This document shows positions 2,084-10,319 of a stretch of DNA of 64,000 bases, piece by piece. The notes beneath the pieces were generated by a model that made no database searches, was not told the origin of the DNA, and saw nothing but the letters and a program-made list of their open reading frames with translations. The stretch is taken from the NCBI GenBank assembly GCA_029776205.1, contig JAKOTQ010000118.1, forward strand, positions 1 through 64,000, in the 5' to 3' direction. This stretch comes from Bacillota bacterium. Lineage in GTDB: Bacteria; Bacillota; UBA4882; UBA8346. The position numbers were made by a program, and so were the translations under genes. Position 1 is the stretch's first letter. Each line of letters starts with the position of its first letter.

Positions 2084-2190
2084 GAATCAGGGGATTTTTT
2101 ATGCTAAGACAGACTTGATGAAAAGTAAAGGCAAGTCGATAATTATACTACAAACAGAATTAGCTTTCTAAAGATACGAAGGTGCAAATC

Positions 2191-5016
2191 ATGCCTATTA
2201 CTTATTTTACAAATCATTCTCTCTTACCTTGCCGTCTGATATTCGTGACACTCCTTGGATTATTGCTATTTTCTTCCGGTATTGTGGCTGAAACCAGCGA
2301 CCCCCTTCGCCTCGAAGCAGAAAACTTCAAGTTAACCGGATTTATTACAGAAAACAATGCAAATGCTTCCGGTCGAAAAGTGATTCGTAGCGTCTTAGCT
2401 GAAAATGTTTATGCTGAGGCTGAGACGGAGTTTAAAGGGAAGAGCGGTTATTATGACCTGGTGATTCATTATTTCGATGAATCAGACGGCGTTAGCGGCT
2501 TTAAACTTTGGTGTGGTTCCAAATGGGTCGATAACTGGAAGGCCTGCCGGGATTTTGACAATGACGGCACCGGTCCCGACAATTTAGTCAGCCGGAAGGT
2601 TACCCGGATTCGATTGAACCGGGGAGATAAAATCAAAATTGCAGGATATAGAAATCAGGGCGAGTATGGCCGGATTGACTGTATCGATCTGTTCTTTTTA
2701 GGAGAGCAATTGGCCGATGTACCTGACCGGGAGGTTGAAAAGGAGCGATTTATCCCCTTTAAACTGGATCAACAAGGTTTTGTGAGAACTTGGCAAACTC
2801 TCGGGCCCATCCTCAGCCCTGTTAATCAAGACCTGGGCAATGAAAAAGAGGCACGGACATGGCTGCTTTCGCGTCTCAGATCACCGGAATTTATCAAGCT
2901 GGAACGGGTACCTAGGATAACCTCTTCCGGTGACGCCTGGGAACTGTATAGCGGCGGGCAAAATGTTTTTGTCGAAACCTATCGCTTCTTCTATAATCTG
3001 ACAGCTTCGGATTATTACGGGTTAACGTATCTAACGGCTCCGGCCAAAACCCGGGTCAAAGCCAGGCTTTGGTCAACCCGGGGAAAAACTCAAGTGTGGT
3101 GCCGCGGCCGTCTGGTGGCCGAACGGGTTCAAGCCTCCGGTACGAAACCGTCTTTTGTCGATGTTGAGCTCCCATTGGAGGCAGGCATCAATCCGGTGAT
3201 CGTCCGGCAATGGGATTTGGGTGCCCGGAATACGCCCCAACTCTTTGGCCTCCAACTCCTTGACGGGGCGGAACAGGTTGAGGCAGGCCTTTTTGGCAAT
3301 GAACAAACAGAAGCCTTTTTTGAAGCGGAAGAGTGGCTTTACTCGGTAAAGTTAAATTCAAGCGGTAATTTGGAAGCAGCCAAGCCTGCACCGCTGGATG
3401 CTTTTGTTCAGTTTGAAAAAGAAAAACGGCGTTGGGCTGCAGGAGAGCGATCGTTTTCCTTTAGCGAAGGAGAAACCCCATTTCAACTGAATCTGGTGGT
3501 TAACCTGGATGACACAGTATTGGTCCGGAAGGTGGAGAACCCTCGGTATTATCCCTATCATTCACCGATTACAGCGGATACTCTTTCCGGGTATCGCCGG
3601 GAATACCTTCGCCTGCTTTTGCCGAAGGAGCAGAAGTCCCTTTATGGCTTGATCATCAAAGCGGTTTTAGGCGAAAAAATGACCAATCGGGATCAGATCC
3701 TCAAAACGGAGTTGGCCCGGATTGACAGCCGGGCGGATTGTTCGGACTTTTATCTCTCGGCAATCTTGCGTTTATACCGGATGGGTGGTCTAACTCCGGA
3801 AGAACAACAGAGGGTTCGAAAGACTGTGCTTGAGTTCCGTTATTGGACTGATGAGAGCGGTACTGATGCCATGTCCATGAGCAGTGAAAACCATCAGCTG
3901 TTGTTCCATGGCTGTCAACTGCTAGCCGGAAATCTGTTTCCGGAGGAACGGTTTAAACGTAGCGGCCGAAAGGGAAAAGAACAGGCCCGGATCGCCAAAG
4001 AGCGCCTTAACCGGTGGTTAAGCCGGGTGGAGCAGAGAGGGTTTGAGGAGTTTTTAAGCAGTGCCTATGTGCCGATTACCATGGGCGGCTTGTTAAACCT
4101 GGTGGATTTTGCGGATGATCAGGAAATAAGCAGGAGAGCTGAAAAACTTGTCGATTCGCTTCTCGTTCGGCTGGCACAGCACAGTTTTGACGGTGTAACT
4201 TCCGGGCCCCAAGGCAGAGTCTACCGTGATGGTGCCTTATATCCGCGAAACAGCGGTACTCAGGCCATTCTGTCCTATGTTACGCCAAAGGCAAAGCTCA
4301 GTCTAAATCCATGGGTTTCTTTTCTGGCCTCATCGCGTTATACGATTCCCTCCGTGGATCAGTGGCTGGATCAGCCGATTGATTTGGTGTATCCTCAGGG
4401 AGGCACCGTCATTACGCTGCGGAAGACGGCTGATTATGCCATAAGTTCGGCCACAGTGCCCTCGCCTTCAGGCGGGAAGGAGTATTGGCCCGGTGCTCTC
4501 GGGACGCAGGAACATCTATGCGATATCAACCTGGGGGATGACACCCATATTTTCCTGAACCATCCCGGTGCTTCTTACGAAACGTCCCAAAGCAGGCCGG
4601 GGTATTGGAACGGGAACGGGGTTTTACCAACTTTGAAGCAAAAAGGTTCGACAATGATGGCCATCTTTGACATCCCCGAAAGTTATCCCATTCAATTTAC
4701 CCATGCTTATTGGCCGGCAGATCAATTTGACCAGGAAGAAAAATACGCCGGATGGTCATTTGCCAGGAAAGGTGACGCATACATCGGCTTATGGTGCAGC
4801 CGTCCCACCATGTTGACCGGCGATATGGTCATGGGACGGGAGTTGAGAGCCAATGGACGCAAAACCGCCTGGGTGGCGGTGGTGTCTTCCCAGGCGGAAG
4901 CTGGTTCCTTCGAAACGTTTATCCATCGATGCCGTGCGATGGCGCCCAGATTTGATTCGGAAGCGAAGGCGTTGTGGGTTGATGGGGAGGTTCAATTGCA
5001 GAGTAGCAGAAGATGA
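2191..5016 (+). CDS. Large secreted protein, putative carbohydrate-binding/processing enzyme
   Basis: About 941 residues. I chose the ATG at 2191 because GAAGGTG lies about six bases upstream; a GTG at 2182 is part of that site. The N-terminus is a typical signal peptide: short polar start, hydrophobic core around FVTLLGLLLFSSGIVA, then cleavage. The next ~145 residues begin DPLRLEAENF and look like a beta-sandwich carbohydrate-binding module (CBM6/35 style), with Asp/Gly-rich DFDNDGTGPDN. The middle and C-terminal parts (from about residue 480), with SSENHQLLFHGCQLL and repeated helices, resemble an alpha/alpha-toroid as in heparinase II/III-like lyases. The fold call is my inference; no catalytic residues can be named. 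No operon partner; flanked by hairpin repeats. Confidence 0.6.
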   Translation: MPITYFTNHSLLPCRLIFVTLLGLLLFSSGIVAETSDPLRLEAENFKLTGFITENNANASGRKVIRSVLAENVYAEAETEFKGKSGYYDLVIHYFDESDGVSGFKLWCGSKWVDNWKACRDFDNDGTGPDNLVSRKVTRIRLNRGDKIKIAGYRNQGEYGRIDCIDLFFLGEQLADVPDREVEKERFIPFKLDQQGFVRTWQTLGPILSPVNQDLGNEKEARTWLLSRLRSPEFIKLERVPRITSSGDAWELYSGGQNVFVETYRFFYNLTASDYYGLTYLTAPAKTRVKARLWSTRGKTQVWCRGRLVAERVQASGTKPSFVDVELPLEAGINPVIVRQWDLGARNTPQLFGLQLLDGAEQVEAGLFGNEQTEAFFEAEEWLYSVKLNSSGNLEAAKPAPLDAFVQFEKEKRRWAAGERSFSFSEGETPFQLNLVVNLDDTVLVRKVENPRYYPYHSPITADTLSGYRREYLRLLLPKEQKSLYGLIIKAVLGEKMTNRDQILKTELARIDSRADCSDFYLSAILRLYRMGGLTPEEQQRVRKTVLEFRYWTDESGTDAMSMSSENHQLLFHGCQLLAGNLFPEERFKRSGRKGKEQARIAKERLNRWLSRVEQRGFEEFLSSAYVPITMGGLLNLVDFADDQEISRRAEKLVDSLLVRLAQHSFDGVTSGPQGRVYRDGALYPRNSGTQAILSYVTPKAKLSLNPWVSFLASSRYTIPSVDQWLDQPIDLVYPQGGTVITLRKTADYAISSATVPSPSGGKEYWPGALGTQEHLCDINLGDDTHIFLNHPGASYETSQSRPGYWNGNGVLPTLKQKGSTMMAIFDIPESYPIQFTHAYWPADQFDQEEKYAGWSFARKGDAYIGLWCSRPTMLTGDMVMGRELRANGRKTAWVAVVSSQAEAGSFETFIHRCRAMAPRFDSEAKALWVDGEVQLQSSRR

Positions 5017-5126
5017 TTTGGCCACAGGAATCTTCGGGCTTAAATTATAACCACAGTATTATCCGGTAATTAACCATGGAATAAGCAAAGGTAATAAGCG
5101 GGCTTTAGTCCAGTTGGTTTTAGCAG

Positions 5127-5146
5127 CCGAGGGTTTTAACCCTCGG
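5127..5146. repeat. 9-bp hairpin CCGAGGGTT/AACCCTCGG
   Basis: A perfect 9-bp stem with a two-base nominal loop lies downstream of the secreted-protein gene. There is no T-tract, so it is probably a REP-like palindrome rather than a terminator. Apart from this, the next hairpin and the terminator, I see nothing in 5017-5418. Confidence 0.5.
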
Positions 5147-5181
5147 ATTGGCTCGTTGTTTAAATGAATTCTAGTGTTTTG

Positions 5182-5221
5182 TCTGCCGACAGGAGGGCGA
5201 ACAGCGTCTCCTGTCGGCAGA
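5182..5221. repeat. Intact 14-bp hairpin repeat (second copy)
   Basis: TCTGCCGACAGGAG (5182-5195) pairs perfectly with CTCCTGTCGGCAGA (5208-5221) around the 12-nt loop GGCGAACAGCGT. A degraded copy is at 2051-2083. The strong symmetry and preserved loop suggest a small dispersed palindromic element (REP/MITE-like). Confidence 0.7.
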
Positions 5222-5283
5222 TAAAACGGTGAGAGAATGAATAACCCGAGCAGATACTCGAATGAAAATAAGGATGTATCAAG

Positions 5284-5320
5284 AAAAAAACCGCTATATC
5301 CTTTATATAGCGGTTTTTTT
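5284..5320. terminator. Bidirectional intrinsic terminator
   Basis: CCGCTATAT (5291-5299) pairs with ATATAGCGG (5305-5313); seven A on the left and seven T on the right give U-tracts on both strands. It separates the plus-strand secreted-protein gene from convergent dapB. Confidence 0.9.
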
Positions 5321-5418
5321 CACACCTTCATCTCTTCAATTTCCTTCTTGCCCATCATCATCGGATCATTTTTAAGTAAGAATAATTAATAAGAAGAATG
5401 AAATGGGGGAGAGGGGGA

Positions 5419-6294
5419 TTAAGCCTCCAATGCCCCTGTATAATCCAACGGCGGGATTCCGGCTGCATCCATGGAGACAGCTTCCCGTTCCAGCTCCGCC
5501 TGGATCACATCCTCCATGCTGAAAAATCCGATGTGTTTCGTGATAAAGCGGGCTGCCTGTAAAGCGCCTTCCGCAAAGACCTTCCGGGAATAGGAACGGT
5601 GAGTAATTTTAATTTCATCGGATTCCCCGGCGAAAAGGACCTCATGGACGCCGACGATACCTCCGGCCCGGATAGCGTGGTTGCCGATCTCTGATTTATC
5701 CCGAAGATGCATCCCTTTTCGGCCGTGAATATATTTGTAGCTTTTATGTCTGCGGACAGCGGCGATTTCATGGGCGATTTTAAGGGCAGTGCCGGAAGGG
5801 GAGTCCTTTTTGTGTTTGTGGTGGGATTCGGTAATCTCCACATCATAGTCGGGTAGTAACCGGCTAACGGTTTTGACGATGGACAACAACAGGTTGATAC
5901 CTAAGGAAATGTTTGGAGCATAGACGATGCCGACTTGATTTTTCTGAGCCAGGCTTTTCAGTTCATAAATTTCCATGGTATTGAACCCGGTGGTTCCAAT
6001 GACCATCGGAATGCCATGTTCAGCTAAGATTCGGGCGTTTTTCAACGTGGCCTCAGGTGATGTGAAGTCGATCGCCACATCCCAGCGATGCTGACGGACT
6101 TCATCGGCCAGCATGTCGGTACTCTGGATCATCAGCTGATTACCACCTAAAATATAGTCGGCCAATTTTTTCCCTTTTTTAGGGCTGTTAGGCCGGGCCA
6201 TAGCAGTAGTCAGGTTGAAGTCAGGTGCTTTAAGTAATTCTTCGGCGATGACCATACCGGTACGACCTAATCCTAATAGACAGGTTTGAATCAT
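5419..6294 (-). CDS. dapB: 4-hydroxy-tetrahydrodipicolinate reductase DapB
   Basis: Reduces the DapA product with NAD(P)H in the diaminopimelate/lysine pathway, which also supplies dipicolinate for spores; cytoplasmic. The 291-residue protein has the N-terminal nucleotide-binding motif GLGRTG (residues 8-13), DFTSPEAT, GTTGF, the catalytic segment ESHHKHKKDSPSGTA and the C-terminal hinge strand. A longer frame to 6381 exists, but its extra 29 codons run through the leader terminator; the ATG at 6294 has AAAGGAGGG in front and is the real start. A C-terminal tail of about 20 residues extends beyond the usual end of the family. Expression should be governed by the c-di-AMP riboswitch and terminator directly upstream. 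Confidence 0.95.
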   Translation of the reverse strand: MIQTCLLGLGRTGMVIAEELLKAPDFNLTTAMARPNSPKKGKKLADYILGGNQLMIQSTDMLADEVRQHRWDVAIDFTSPEATLKNARILAEHGIPMVIGTTGFNTMEIYELKSLAQKNQVGIVYAPNISLGINLLLSIVKTVSRLLPDYDVEITESHHKHKKDSPSGTALKIAHEIAAVRRHKSYKYIHGRKGMHLRDKSEIGNHAIRAGGIVGVHEVLFAGESDEIKITHRSYSRKVFAEGALQAARFITKHIGFFSMEDVIQAELEREAVSMDAAGIPPLDYTGALEA

Positions 6295-6323
6295 GGTGAG
6301 TCCCTCCTTTAATGTTTTTTGGC

Positions 6324-6357
6324 AAAAGAAAACGCCATAGCAAAAGAGGCCATGGCG
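6324..6357 (-). terminator. Riboswitch-controlled intrinsic terminator in the dapB leader
   Basis: In the transcript, CGCCATGGC (6357-6349) pairs with GCTATGGCG (6341-6333) with one wobble, followed by GTTTTCTTTT. It lies between the c-di-AMP aptamer and the dapB ribosome binding site, the expected place for the expression platform. Confidence 0.8.
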
Positions 6358-6395
6358 GGCAAAAGGCGACAACAAGACCATGATACCTCTCTGGC

Positions 6396-6508
6396 GACGC
6401 TGACGAGGTTAGCTGACGGGTTCGGATCGTCGAGTAACCCTACACCGGACGGTGATTCACCCCAAAAAAGTGGTTCCCCCGCTCTCCTGTAAGAGGAGAT
6501 TGAGCGTT
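6396..6508 (-). promoter_or_regulatory. c-di-AMP riboswitch (ydaO/yuaA type) controlling dapB
   Basis: The minus strand carries the conserved blocks of the ydaO aptamer in order: ACGCTCAATC at the 5' side, GCGGGGGAACC, GGGGTGAATC, GTGTAGGG, then CCGAACCCGTCAGCTAACCT and a closing AGCGT that pairs with the starting ACGCT. This matches the B. subtilis ydaO aptamer block by block as I remember it. Known members bind c-di-AMP and switch transcription off by favouring a downstream terminator, and a terminator hairpin is present at 6324-6357. High c-di-AMP should therefore lower dapB expression. Confidence 0.92.
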
Positions 6509-6548
6509 ATTAGGAAATGGTTTCGTTTAAGATTATTCAGTTTTCTTT

Positions 6549-6577
6549 ATTATATGCTTAAAAAATAAATTAGTCAA
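6549..6577 (-). promoter_or_regulatory. Sigma-A promoter for the dapB leader
   Basis: On the minus strand, TTGACT (6577-6572), a 17-bp spacer and a perfect TATAAT (6554-6549). The -35 box overlaps the last codons of prs, so dapB has its own promoter; transcription would start about 35 bases before the riboswitch. Confidence 0.85.
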
Positions 6578-7517
6578 ATAATACGCTGACCGAGATATCC
6601 TGATGAATCCGGCGGATGGCGTCACCCAAAAGGGGAGCTACCGATAGTGTGGTGATCTTCGGTAATTGTTTTTCAGGGGTCAACGGAATGGTGTTGCAAA
6701 TCACAATTTCTTTAATAGCCGGATGGCTTAAGCGTTCAATGGCCGGTGGTGAAAAAATTGCATGAGTGGTTAACAGATGGATTTCCGGTCTGGCTCCACG
6801 GTTTAACAAGGTTTCCACCACTTGCATGATGCTTCCGGCGGTATCCACCATATCATCAATGATAATCGGCGTTTTGTCTTTAACATCGCCGATGAAGAAA
6901 GTCATCTCAGCCACATTGGGTGCAGGGCGTCGCTTGTACATCACTCCGAGGGGCATGTCCAATCGGGTTGCCAATTTTTCCGCTTTTTTAACGCTGCCCG
7001 CATCCGGCGCGATGACAACGCCGTCGCTAATTTTTTTCTGCTTAATGTACTGTGCCAACATCGGAAGTGCGGTCATATGATCCACCGGAATATTGAAGAA
7101 ACCTTGAATGGCCGGAGCATGCAAATCCATCGTAATTACCCGGTTGGCACCGACGGTCGAGAGGACATCAGCGATCATCCGGGCGGTAATCGGTTCCCGG
7201 GGTGCGGTTTTCTTCTCCTGCCGTGCATAACAGTAATAAGGAATAACGGCGGTTATCTGCCCGGCCGATGCTCTTTTTAAAGCATCGATCATGATCAATA
7301 ATTCCATAAGGGAATCATTGATGTTGTTAGAAAAGGACTGAACGATAAAAACATCGGAACCCCGAATACTTTCGCTGAATCGGACATAGATTTCGCCGTT
7401 GGCGAACCGGGATATATGGACTTCGCCGAGGCGTACGCCTAAGTAATCGGCAATTTCCTGTCCCAATTCGGGATGGGTCGTTCCGGAAAACAGTTTCATC
7501 GGTCCATACTGTGACAA
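6570..7517 (-). CDS. prs: Ribose-phosphate pyrophosphokinase (PRPP synthetase)
   Basis: Makes PRPP from ribose 5-phosphate and ATP for nucleotide, His and Trp synthesis. The 315-residue length is typical. Visible features are the N-terminal KLFSGTTHPELGQEIA, the catalytic segment YYCYARQEKKTAPREPI, the metal-binding MDLHAPAIQGFF and the PRPP loop IIDDMVDTAGS. The start is the TTG at 7517: GGAGGTGG (7530-7523) is five bases upstream, whereas the longer frame to 7574 adds 19 unrelated residues. It follows rpmB on the same strand but beyond a terminator. Confidence 0.96.
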   Translation of the reverse strand: MSQYGPMKLFSGTTHPELGQEIADYLGVRLGEVHISRFANGEIYVRFSESIRGSDVFIVQSFSNNINDSLMELLIMIDALKRASAGQITAVIPYYCYARQEKKTAPREPITARMIADVLSTVGANRVITMDLHAPAIQGFFNIPVDHMTALPMLAQYIKQKKISDGVVIAPDAGSVKKAEKLATRLDMPLGVMYKRRPAPNVAEMTFFIGDVKDKTPIIIDDMVDTAGSIMQVVETLLNRGARPEIHLLTTHAIFSPPAIERLSHPAIKEIVICNTIPLTPEKQLPKITTLSVAPLLGDAIRRIHQDISVSVLFD

Positions 7518-7573
7518 GTTGTCCACCTCCGTAAATGATGAGAAACCATGAACGCTTTGGGTTGGGCAAAACA

Positions 7574-7595
7574 AAAAAGACCCGCAGGTCTTTTT
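7574..7595 (-). terminator. Intrinsic terminator between rpmB and prs
   Basis: AAAAAGACC (7574-7582) pairs with GGTCTTTTT (7587-7595) around CGCA. On the minus strand the hairpin is followed by TTTTTTGTTTT. It should stop rpmB transcription, although prs starts only ~57 bases further on. Confidence 0.8.
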
Positions 7596-7607
7596 GGTAT
7601 ATTTTTT

Positions 7608-7799
7608 TTACACTGCTCTTTGGACTTTATTTGACCGTAAGCAGCGAGTGCAGACGCGAATGCGTTTGGAAGCACCATTAACTATCGCTTTGACTGTGCG
7701 AATATTCGCTTTCCAACGACGATGAGTTTTAATATTTGAGTGGCTGACCAGGTTACCGCTTTGAAAATCTTTGCCACAGACTGAGCAACGGTTTGACAT
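7608..7799 (-). CDS. rpmB: 50S ribosomal protein L28
   Basis: A 63-residue basic protein of normal length. It carries the zinc-binding form with two Cys pairs (CSVCG near the N-terminus and CTRCL near the C-terminus) and the typical SHSNIKTHRRWKANI segment. AGGTGT precedes the ATG. Monocistronic: a good promoter lies 40-70 bases upstream and a terminator directly downstream. Confidence 0.97.
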   Translation of the reverse strand: MSNRCSVCGKDFQSGNLVSHSNIKTHRRWKANIRTVKAIVNGASKRIRVCTRCLRSNKVQRAV

Positions 7800-7839
7800 C
7801 CCTTACACCTCCAAAATGACATGCATTAGAAACACAAAT

Positions 7840-7868
7840 ATTTTATCATAAACAATCAGTAATGACAA
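7840..7868 (-). promoter_or_regulatory. Sigma-A promoter for rpmB
   Basis: Minus strand TTGTCA (7868-7863), 17-bp spacer, TAAAAT (7845-7840), about 40 bases before the rpmB start. Confidence 0.7.
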
Positions 7869-8259
7869 GCAAAATTGTGAATAATGTTGGGAAATTACTT
7901 CTTTCTTAACATATATTCTATAATCTGCATTCGGAAAAGAAAAGACTGATAGGGTTTTCAGCAGGAATTTGATAAATAGGTCACGAAAATAATAAAAATT
8001 AAGGCAGTAAATCATAAGTCATAACCGAAATAAATTGCTACTGTACAGAGTAAAATGATCGTGTATAATAGTAACCGGTTATTTTCTTCCAGAATTGGAT
8101 TGCAGTTGCGGTTAATTTTAGGTTTGACGGGAGAAGCTTAAATCAAAACGGTAAGAAGGAAACCCTTATTTTTGGTGAGAGATTTAACGGATAGTGCAGG
8201 AAAATTTCTTTTTTTCTCGAAATATTTGCCGAAATTTATTATAATAAGGGGGAGCCTCG
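7869..8259. other. Divergent intergenic region between rpmB and the Asp23-family gene
   Basis: About 390 AT-rich bases without a believable gene; the 70-codon minus-strand frame at 7803-8015 lacks a ribosome binding site and has shadow-like composition. A possible plus-strand promoter is TGTACA (8042-8047), 16-bp spacer, TATAAT (8064-8069), which would give a leader of nearly 190 bases before the gene at 8260. Confidence 0.5.
8042..8069 (+). promoter_or_regulatory. Possible promoter for the asp23-fakA operon
   Basis: A perfect TATAAT at 8064-8069 has a weak -35-like TGTACA 16 bases upstream. The long distance to the first gene leaves this tentative. Confidence 0.4.
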
Positions 8260-8631
8260 GTGGCAGAAAAAAGCAATTCAGGAACTTTGGGGAGTATTAA
8301 TATTTCACCCAATGCGATTGCGATGGTCGCAGGTATCGCGGCATTGCAATGTTTCGGAGTTGTTGGAATGGCCTCGCGGACCATTCAGGATGGGATCTCC
8401 GAGCTGCTTACCGGAAAAGACAATCTTAGTAAAGGAATTGAGGTTGATATTGACGGTGAACGCGTTACTGTGGATCTCTACATCATAGTCGAATATGGGG
8501 TTCGGATTAAAGAAGTTGCTTATAATGTTATCGAAAATGTCAAGTATGCCATCGAGAATCAGCTGGGTTTGAAAATACTGAAAGTGAACGTCATCGTCCA
8601 GGGCGTACGCATCGATAAAAATAAATCCTGA
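8260..8631 (+). CDS. Asp23/Gls24 family envelope-stress protein (YloU-like)
   Basis: 123 residues covering the whole Asp23 domain: NISPNAIAMVAGIAALQCFGVVGM, a central VDLYIIVEYGVRI strand and the closing LKVNVIVQGVRI strand. Proteins of this family are small cytosolic or membrane-associated proteins linked to envelope stress and alkaline tolerance. The start is a GTG at 8260 behind GGGGGAG. It is followed after 41 bases by the fatty-acid kinase gene, the same order as yloU-yloV in Bacillus, which supports the assignment. Confidence 0.9.
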   Translation: MAEKSNSGTLGSINISPNAIAMVAGIAALQCFGVVGMASRTIQDGISELLTGKDNLSKGIEVDIDGERVTVDLYIIVEYGVRIKEVAYNVIENVKYAIENQLGLKILKVNVIVQGVRIDKNKS

Positions 8632-8672
8632 TCGCGTGAGACGAATTTAGGAGCAAAAGGGAGGATACACCT

Positions 8673-10319
8673 TTGCAGCCAGATGCAATAGGAATAGATA
8701 GTGTATTATTGAAGGAACTTGTGGCATCGGCCACTGCCAATATGTATTTGCATAAGGGCGATGTGGACGCGCTCAATGTTTTCCCGGTTCCGGACGGTGA
8801 TACCGGAACCAATATGTATTTAACATTTCAGGCGGCATTTAGGGAACTCAGCAATAATCCTTCGACAAATATCATTGAGCTGTTGGAATCTGCGGCCTAT
8901 GGCGCCTTAATGGGAGCCCGGGGGAACAGCGGCGTTATCGTATCCCAATTTTTCCGGGGATTTGTCAAAGCCCTTCCTAAAGAGACTCAGGTCATTGGTA
9001 AGAAGGAATTGGCGCTGGGTATTTCCGGTGCGGCTTCGATGGCCCTTAAAGCCGTCCGTCAACCGGTTGAGGGAACGATTCTGACGGTCATTCGGGAAAT
9101 GGCCAACTATGCGACTGATAATGTGAATAATGATCGGACGCTCAAAGAATATATGAATGATATTTACGAACATGCCAACCTGGTACTTTCGAAAACCCCG
9201 GAGATGCTCCCGGTTTTACGACAGGCTGGGGTTGTGGATGCCGGCGGTCAAGGGTTGGTTTATTTTGTTGAAGGTATTGTTCAGCATATTAACGGAAAGG
9301 CCGTTTCTACCGAGAAGATGAATGAGGCTGCCGTATCCAAAAAAGTGGTGAGCGTCGCTTCATATACGGACGATGAGTTATTATCTGATACGGAGATTAA
9401 TTTCCAATATTGTACCGAGTTTATTTTAAAGGGCAAAGAATTAGATCTGGAACATATTAAAAACAGCCTCAGTCCGCACGGTGATTGCCTGTTGGTGGTC
9501 GGAGACGAAAATACCACTAAAATCCACATTCACACCAACAATCCTGGGATTATCCTTGATTTTGCCGTTCGGCTGGGTGAAATGTTTGAAATTCAAATCC
9601 ATAATATGGTGGAACAAAGCCAGCAACGGTTGGCCAAATTGGTTTCTCAGGAAAGTGGCGGAGGCCAGATCGGGGTTGTTGCCATTTCAACCGGGGACGG
9701 AATGGATAAAATCTTTAAGAGCTTAGGCGTTAATATCGTTATTAACGGTGGACAAACTATGAATCCCAGCGTTGAGGATATGGCGAACGTTGTGTCGAAA
9801 TTAGAGGCTTCCAAAGTCATTCTGTTACCTAACAACAGTAATATCGTGATGACGGCTAACCATGTCCAGGATTTGGTTAAAAAAGAGGTTCGGGTAGTTC
9901 CTACTCAAAGTGTACCTGAGGGATTGGCTGCTATGATGAGCTTTTCCCAGGAACGCACTTTAGATGAGAATGTCGAAAAAATGACTGAAAAAAGCAGTCA
10001 TATCATCACCGGAGAAGTCACCTATGCCGTTCGGAGTATTCAGTTGGGTGACTTGGACATCAATCAGGGAGATATCATCGGTTTGGTTAACGGCGATATT
10101 GTAACCTATGGAGATAACCCTGAAAAAGTCGTGGAAGAGGCGTTGAAGAAAATTCCTTCGGCAGCAAGCAGCCTGGTAACGATTTATTTCGGTGCTGATG
10201 TTTCCGAACTGACGGCACAGGAATTATTGAATCGTTTGGAAAAAGTCTTCCCTGATGCTGAATTTGAACTCTATTACGGTGGTCAGCCTTTATATTACTA
10301 TTTATTCTCAGTGGAGTAG
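8673..10319 (+). CDS. fakA: Fatty acid kinase catalytic subunit FakA (DAK2 domain, YloV family)
   Basis: Phosphorylates fatty acids held by a FakB/DegV carrier so that exogenous acyl chains enter phospholipids. 548 residues, the family length. The N-terminal DAK2 kinase domain shows NVFPVPDGDTGTNMY (metal/ATP site, about residues 35-50) and GARGNSGVI; the middle and C-terminal DAK1-like domain follows. Start is TTG at 8673 behind AGGGAGG. The DegV protein gene follows within 9 bases, consistent with an encoded partner. Confidence 0.9.
   Translation: MQPDAIGIDSVLLKELVASATANMYLHKGDVDALNVFPVPDGDTGTNMYLTFQAAFRELSNNPSTNIIELLESAAYGALMGARGNSGVIVSQFFRGFVKALPKETQVIGKKELALGISGAASMALKAVRQPVEGTILTVIREMANYATDNVNNDRTLKEYMNDIYEHANLVLSKTPEMLPVLRQAGVVDAGGQGLVYFVEGIVQHINGKAVSTEKMNEAAVSKKVVSVASYTDDELLSDTEINFQYCTEFILKGKELDLEHIKNSLSPHGDCLLVVGDENTTKIHIHTNNPGIILDFAVRLGEMFEIQIHNMVEQSQQRLAKLVSQESGGGQIGVVAISTGDGMDKIFKSLGVNIVINGGQTMNPSVEDMANVVSKLEASKVILLPNNSNIVMTANHVQDLVKKEVRVVPTQSVPEGLAAMMSFSQERTLDENVEKMTEKSSHIITGEVTYAVRSIQLGDLDINQGDIIGLVNGDIVTYGDNPEKVVEEALKKIPSAASSLVTIYFGADVSELTAQELLNRLEKVFPDAEFELYYGGQPLYYYLFSVE

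What the first reader, a model, noticed from the sequence alone, without database searches (positions are those of the whole stretch)
6324..6577. c-di-AMP riboswitch placed on dapB
Promoter, ydaO-type aptamer, terminator hairpin, ribosome binding site and dapB follow in order on the minus strand. ydaO switches are best known before K+/osmolyte transporters and wall hydrolases; dapB as sole target would make diaminopimelate and dipicolinate supply directly responsive to c-di-AMP. I do not recall dapB as a common target.
Basis: partly seen in the sequence, partly recalled or inferred. Interest (0 to 1): 0.78.

Follow-up and report, generated by a model that had tools for sequence, protein, structure and literature searches.

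The report
c-di-AMP riboswitch on second dapB
A standard c-di-AMP-sensing RNA switch sits in front of a spare copy of the lysine/cell-wall precursor gene dapB, while the main copy answers to lysine instead; linking this switch to dapB has been published before, so the new part is that the two copies are divided between two switches, a pattern conserved across a bacterial family.

Summary
A full-length RF00379 aptamer (101.7 bits, cut-off 38) lies at 6516-6382(-). It follows a good promoter and precedes an intrinsic terminator, a ribosome binding site and a DapB-family gene (6294-5419). A competing antiterminator is predicted, so this should be an ordinary transcriptional OFF switch.

The interpretation needs correcting on three points. 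(1) This dapB is a second copy. The canonical dapB1 is elsewhere, in a lysine-riboswitch operon dapB1-dpaA-dpaB-dapG-dapA, so the switch does not govern diaminopimelate or dipicolinate supply as a whole. From pathway knowledge, DapB competes with dipicolinate synthesis rather than feeding it. (2) A c-di-AMP riboswitch before dapB is already published: a Na+/c-di-AMP tandem in Acetivibrio cellulolyticus (PMC9337991). (3) The 'sole target' part holds: only one RF00379 in a 99.4%-complete assembly.

New here: in the family, all ten genomes have dapB1 with a lysine riboswitch nearby, and eight also carry a monocistronic dapB2 behind a c-di-AMP riboswitch. DapB2 is an old, separate clade. This genome has one dapA and no detectable lysine 2,3-aminomutase, so the published beta-lysine rationale does not carry over directly. 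The likely role, inferred, is a lysine-independent boost of the DapB step when c-di-AMP is low.

The parts
6549..6577 (-). sigma-70-type promoter TTGACT-17-TATAAT, overlapping the end of the upstream prs gene (6570-7574)
   Evidence: 11 of 12 matches; consensus match only
6382..6516 (-). c-di-AMP (ydaO/yuaA) riboswitch aptamer, RF00379, full length
   Evidence: 101.7 bits, E 5.2e-23, gathering score 38
6377..6392 (-). left strand of the predicted antiterminator, AGAGAGGT..CATGGT, made largely from the aptamer's 3' tail
   Evidence: duplex -18.2 kcal/mol with the terminator's left arm and loop; 8 of 1000 shuffles as good; also seen
6343..6356 (-). right strand of the predicted antiterminator (GCCATGGCCTCTTT), overlapping the terminator's left arm and loop
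   Evidence: mutually exclusive with the terminator stem
6333..6357 (-). intrinsic terminator hairpin CGCCATGGC-ctctttt-GCTATGGCG followed by TTTTCTTTTG
   Evidence: -13.6 kcal/mol
6302..6310 (-). ribosome binding site AAAGGAGGG
   Evidence: sequence
5419..6294 (-). dapB2: second 4-hydroxy-tetrahydrodipicolinate reductase gene, 291 aa, monocistronic
   Evidence: E-x-H-H-x-x-K-x-D-x-P-S-G-T motif present

Best explanation
A canonical c-di-AMP riboswitch controls dapB2, a stand-alone second copy of dapB, by transcription termination. With c-di-AMP bound, the aptamer keeps its 3' tail and the hairpin 6357-6333 terminates transcription (OFF). When c-di-AMP falls, as in low-K+ or high-osmolarity conditions, the tail AGAGAGGT..CATGGT pairs with GCCATGGCCTCTTT, breaks the terminator, and dapB2 is transcribed (ON). 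The canonical dapB1-dpaA-dpaB-dapG-dapA operon is instead under a lysine riboswitch. One enzymatic step is thus split between two sensors: DapB1 follows lysine demand, and DapB2 is added under osmotic or envelope demand whatever the lysine level, pulling flux towards diaminopimelate/lysine and away from dipicolinate. Shown: aptamer, terminator, gene identity, two copies, two riboswitch classes, conservation in the family. Predicted from folding: the antiterminator. Inferred: ligand response, sign, enzyme activity and physiological role.
For: Aptamer 101.7 bits. Mutually exclusive terminator (-13.6) and antiterminator (-18.2, 8 of 1000 shuffles as good) in the window; the same kind of pairing in the genus sister G001 and in G009, G006b and G328 at 23 of 1000 or better. 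dapB2 behind RF00379 in 8 of 10 family genomes and in one genome of another family, G328. dapB1 with a lysine riboswitch nearby in all 10. One dapA and one lysine riboswitch in this genome. c-di-AMP OFF behaviour by the same logic was shown in vitro for the Dehalobacter switch (PMC9337991). Two cyclase-domain genes present.
Against: No binding, transcription or enzyme data for this locus. Antiterminator complementarity is not above shuffles in G002, G005 and G006a (221, 470 and 235 of 1000), is marginal in G007 (51 of 1000), and G008 has no terminator found by the same search. Upstream enzymes (dapG, dapA) stay under lysine control, so raising DapB alone may change flux little. The genome has no AblA-type aminomutase match, so the known beta-lysine rationale is missing.
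Confidence: 0.8

Rival explanations
1. dapB2 serves osmolyte synthesis: lysine made under osmotic stress becomes N-epsilon-acetyl-beta-lysine through AblA and AblB.
For: Published rationale for Na+/c-di-AMP tandems before ablA and dapB (PMC9337991). Ten of 70 RF00379 hits in relatives precede a group of aminomutase-like genes (recognised by eye). In G006 a second switch-controlled dapB lies about 2.8 kb from an ablA-ablB pair.
Against: No TIGR03820 match in G000 to G004, although G000, G001 and G002 carry the switch and dapB2.
Confidence: 0.2
2. DapB2 is no longer a DapA-product reductase but a relative acting on another substrate in an osmolyte or envelope pathway.
For: Separate clade, about 28% identical to DapB1. 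NAD-motif GLGRTG where DapB1 has GCCGRMG. G005, G006 and G008 homologues have CH for HH, and G008 has PSAT for PSGT.
Against: Catalytic His/Lys and the DSPSGT motif are kept in the window protein. It scores 241.7 bits to the dapB equivalog model (cut-off 122) and does not match 2,4-diaminopentanoate dehydrogenase in the same scan. Closest solved structures are annotated dihydrodipicolinate reductases.
Confidence: 0.15
3. The association is a neutral relic: a mobile or misplaced riboswitch on a redundant gene.
For: dapB2 is redundant with dapB1, and two family members (G003, G004) lack it.
Against: The arrangement is kept across 8 genomes with DapB2 proteins 41-90% identical to the window's and was found in a second family (G328). 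Aptamer, terminator and reading frame are intact in nearly all.
Confidence: 0.07

Closest known systems
Na+-I/c-di-AMP tandem riboswitch before dapB in Acetivibrio cellulolyticus (White et al. 2022, PMC9337991, Extended Data Fig. 6)
   Same: c-di-AMP riboswitch directly before a dapB gene, linked by its authors to osmotic stress.
   Different: Here there is a single c-di-AMP switch: no other Rfam family reached its cut-off in the leader. Whether the Acetivibrio gene is a second copy is not stated in the text read.
ydaO/kimA c-di-AMP riboswitch of Bacillus subtilis
   Same: Same aptamer family, transcription-termination OFF logic.
   Different: Target is a K+ importer there and an amino-acid pathway enzyme here.
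Lysine riboswitch (RF00168) on dap operons
   Same: Controls the same enzymatic step, in this same genome, on dapB1.
   Different: Different ligand and a different gene copy.
c-di-AMP riboswitch on ablA (Dehalobacter sp. CF)
   Same: Puts lysine-derived metabolism under c-di-AMP; the alternative pairing involves the P1 and pseudoknot region.
   Different: ablA was not detected in this genome.

Membership tests
c-di-AMP riboswitch (RF00379) | Full-length covariance-model match above the gathering score | tested here: met
   101.7 bits versus 38, model positions 1-134
c-di-AMP riboswitch (RF00379) | Leader position with an expression platform (terminator plus alternative pairing) | tested here: met
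   Terminator -13.6 and antiterminator -18.2 kcal/mol, mutually exclusive; computed only
c-di-AMP riboswitch (RF00379) | Host can make c-di-AMP | tested here: met
   Two PF02457 proteins in the genome
c-di-AMP riboswitch (RF00379) | Binds c-di-AMP and raises termination | not testable with these tools
   needs in-line probing and in vitro transcription
DapB (4-hydroxy-tetrahydrodipicolinate reductase) | Match to the curated dapB equivalog model above cut-off | tested here: met
   TIGR00036 241.7 bits versus 122
DapB (4-hydroxy-tetrahydrodipicolinate reductase) | Catalytic motif E-x-H-H-x-x-K-x-D-x-P-S-G-T | tested here: met
   ESHHKHKKDSPSGT in the window protein
DapB (4-hydroxy-tetrahydrodipicolinate reductase) | Reductase activity on the DapA product | not testable with these tools
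   needs enzyme assay or complementation
Na+-I/c-di-AMP tandem riboswitch | Na+-I aptamer upstream of the c-di-AMP aptamer | tested here: not met
   Only RF00379 and one distant tRNA reach the cut-off in the window; the predicted -10 element ends about 33 bases before the aptamer

The most novel reading that the evidence does not exclude
A whole bacterial family keeps two dapB isoenzymes divided between two riboswitch classes, lysine for dapB1 and c-di-AMP for dapB2. c-di-AMP can then open the DapB step independently of lysine feedback and steer the branch point from dipicolinate to diaminopimelate, for osmotic or wall needs rather than for beta-lysine.
Probability: 0.4. Interest if true: 0.6.

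Novelty: new member of a known kind. Interest (0 to 1): 0.42.

Why it matters
c-di-AMP is best known for controlling K+ and osmolyte transport. A conserved c-di-AMP-gated isoenzyme in the diaminopimelate/lysine pathway, beside a lysine-gated copy, gives a simple testable case of one metabolic step shared between a metabolite sensor and a second-messenger sensor. It bears on how wall-precursor supply is tied to turgor. The riboswitch and its link to dapB are already known, which limits the surprise.

Tried and rejected
Considered that this dapB is the cell's main DapB: rejected, because a second dapB with dpaA, dpaB, dapG and dapA sits behind a lysine riboswitch. Considered the beta-lysine osmolyte route in this genome: no AblA match. 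Considered a Na+/c-di-AMP tandem: no other Rfam family in the leader. Considered 2,4-diaminopentanoate dehydrogenase: no match of the window protein to that model. Considered a recent lineage duplication of dapB1: rejected, since DapB2 and DapB1 fall on separate branches with full support. The full-leader minimum-energy fold was not informative (z -0.44), as expected for a pseudoknotted aptamer. Nelson et al. 2013 (PMC3830699) is not held, so its target list could not be checked. A larger phylum-wide cross of RF00379 with all DapB genes was not run.

Full report
Observation. The gene is followed by a convergent ORF (2182-5016) and so appears monocistronic. It is the only RF00379 in a 2.73-Mb assembly rated 99.4% complete, and the genome has two diadenylate cyclase-domain proteins.

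Mechanism. The aptamer's 3' tail can pair with the terminator's left arm and loop: AGAGAGGT..CATGGT with GCCATGGCCTCTTT, -18.2 kcal/mol, 8 of 1000 shuffles of the left segment as good. The two pairings exclude each other, which is the usual layout of an OFF switch. The same test gives 4 of 1000 in G001, 8 in G009, 51 in G007, 23 in G006b and 6 in G328. It is not better than shuffles in G002, G005 and G006a, although those leaders show the same CATG(G)/CCATGG arrangement and a clear terminator. G008 has no terminator found by the same search. White et al. describe the same logic for the Dehalobacter switch and show c-di-AMP-dependent termination in vitro (PMC9337991). Ligand response at this locus is inferred, not shown.

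Which dapB. The genome has a second dapB on another contig. There a lysine riboswitch (RF00168, 100.5 bits, the only one in the genome) precedes dapB1, dpaA, dpaB, aspartate kinase and dapA, and this dapA is the only one in the genome. The switch in the window therefore controls an additional isoenzyme, dapB2, and not the whole supply of diaminopimelate and dipicolinate.

Conservation. In the ten genomes of the family, a lysine riboswitch was found at every canonical dapB1 locus scanned, including one cut short by the contig in G004. A dapB2 behind RF00379 is present in eight: G000, G001, G002, G005, G006 (twice), G007, G008 and G009. G003 and G004 show a single dapB. A profile of DapB2 found only eight further loci of this type outside the family in 399 phylum genomes, at 280-373 bits and then a gap to 195 bits. 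Of the eight, seven were scanned; one (G328, another family) has RF00379 in front and six do not. The tree puts DapB1 and the switch-borne DapB2 on separate, fully supported sides, with two DapB2 branches carrying the switch. So DapB2 is an old separate lineage, and its link to c-di-AMP is a stable trait of this family.

Targets of the switch in relatives. Among 70 RF00379 hits in the relatives whose downstream genes were read, dapB accounts for nine, all in this family. Ten precede a group of aminomutase-like genes, nine a SulP-like transporter group and seven a transporter group that looks like amino-acid/K+ carriers. Smaller groups include octopine-dehydrogenase-family genes, asparagine-synthase-like genes and trehalose-type enzymes. 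Most of these names were recognised by eye from the sequence; only a few were scanned with profile libraries. The set fits osmoadaptation.

Role. The published rationale for dapB under c-di-AMP control is osmoprotection through lysine (and beta-lysine) or peptidoglycan (PMC9337991). In this genome and in G001 to G004 there is no AblA match, so the beta-lysine route cannot explain dapB2 here unless an unrecognised enzyme does it. The simplest reading is a lysine-independent supplement of the DapB step when c-di-AMP is low. A weak point is that the upstream steps remain under lysine control. A change of substrate cannot be excluded: some homologues have altered motif residues (G005, G006, G008). 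The window protein keeps the catalytic motif, and its closest solved relatives are annotated dihydrodipicolinate reductases.

Novelty. The switch is a textbook member of RF00379, and its link with dapB was reported in 2022. The split of two dapB copies between lysine and c-di-AMP riboswitches did not appear in the papers that could be searched, but that library is partial and the main target list (Nelson et al. 2013) was not available.

Noticed in passing
L011 (G051), L065 (G029), L079 (G008): RF00379 riboswitches directly before octopine/nopaline-dehydrogenase-family genes (PF02317 confirmed for L011), a target I do not recall as described.
   Followed up: partly
L066 (G003), L069 (G006), L082 (G005): RF00379 before asparagine-synthase-like genes in three genomes of the same family; the G005 copy lies next to ablA.
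   Followed up: partly
L172 (G006), 3751-9600: A second switch-controlled dapB2-type gene about 2.8 kb from an ablA-ablB-like pair, linking dapB2 to beta-lysine synthesis in that genome.
   Followed up: partly
L097 2303-3214 (G008): DapB2 with altered active-site motif (CH for HH, PSAT for PSGT) and a leader without a recognisable terminator: perhaps decaying or changed in function.
   Followed up: no
L169 3149-3997 (G007), L170 2995-3843 (G009): A third, DapB2-derived copy next to a cysteine-synthase-like gene, without a riboswitch.
   Followed up: no
L097 148-233: A c-di-GMP-I riboswitch lies about 1.9 kb from the c-di-AMP riboswitch in G008, on the opposite strand.
   Followed up: no
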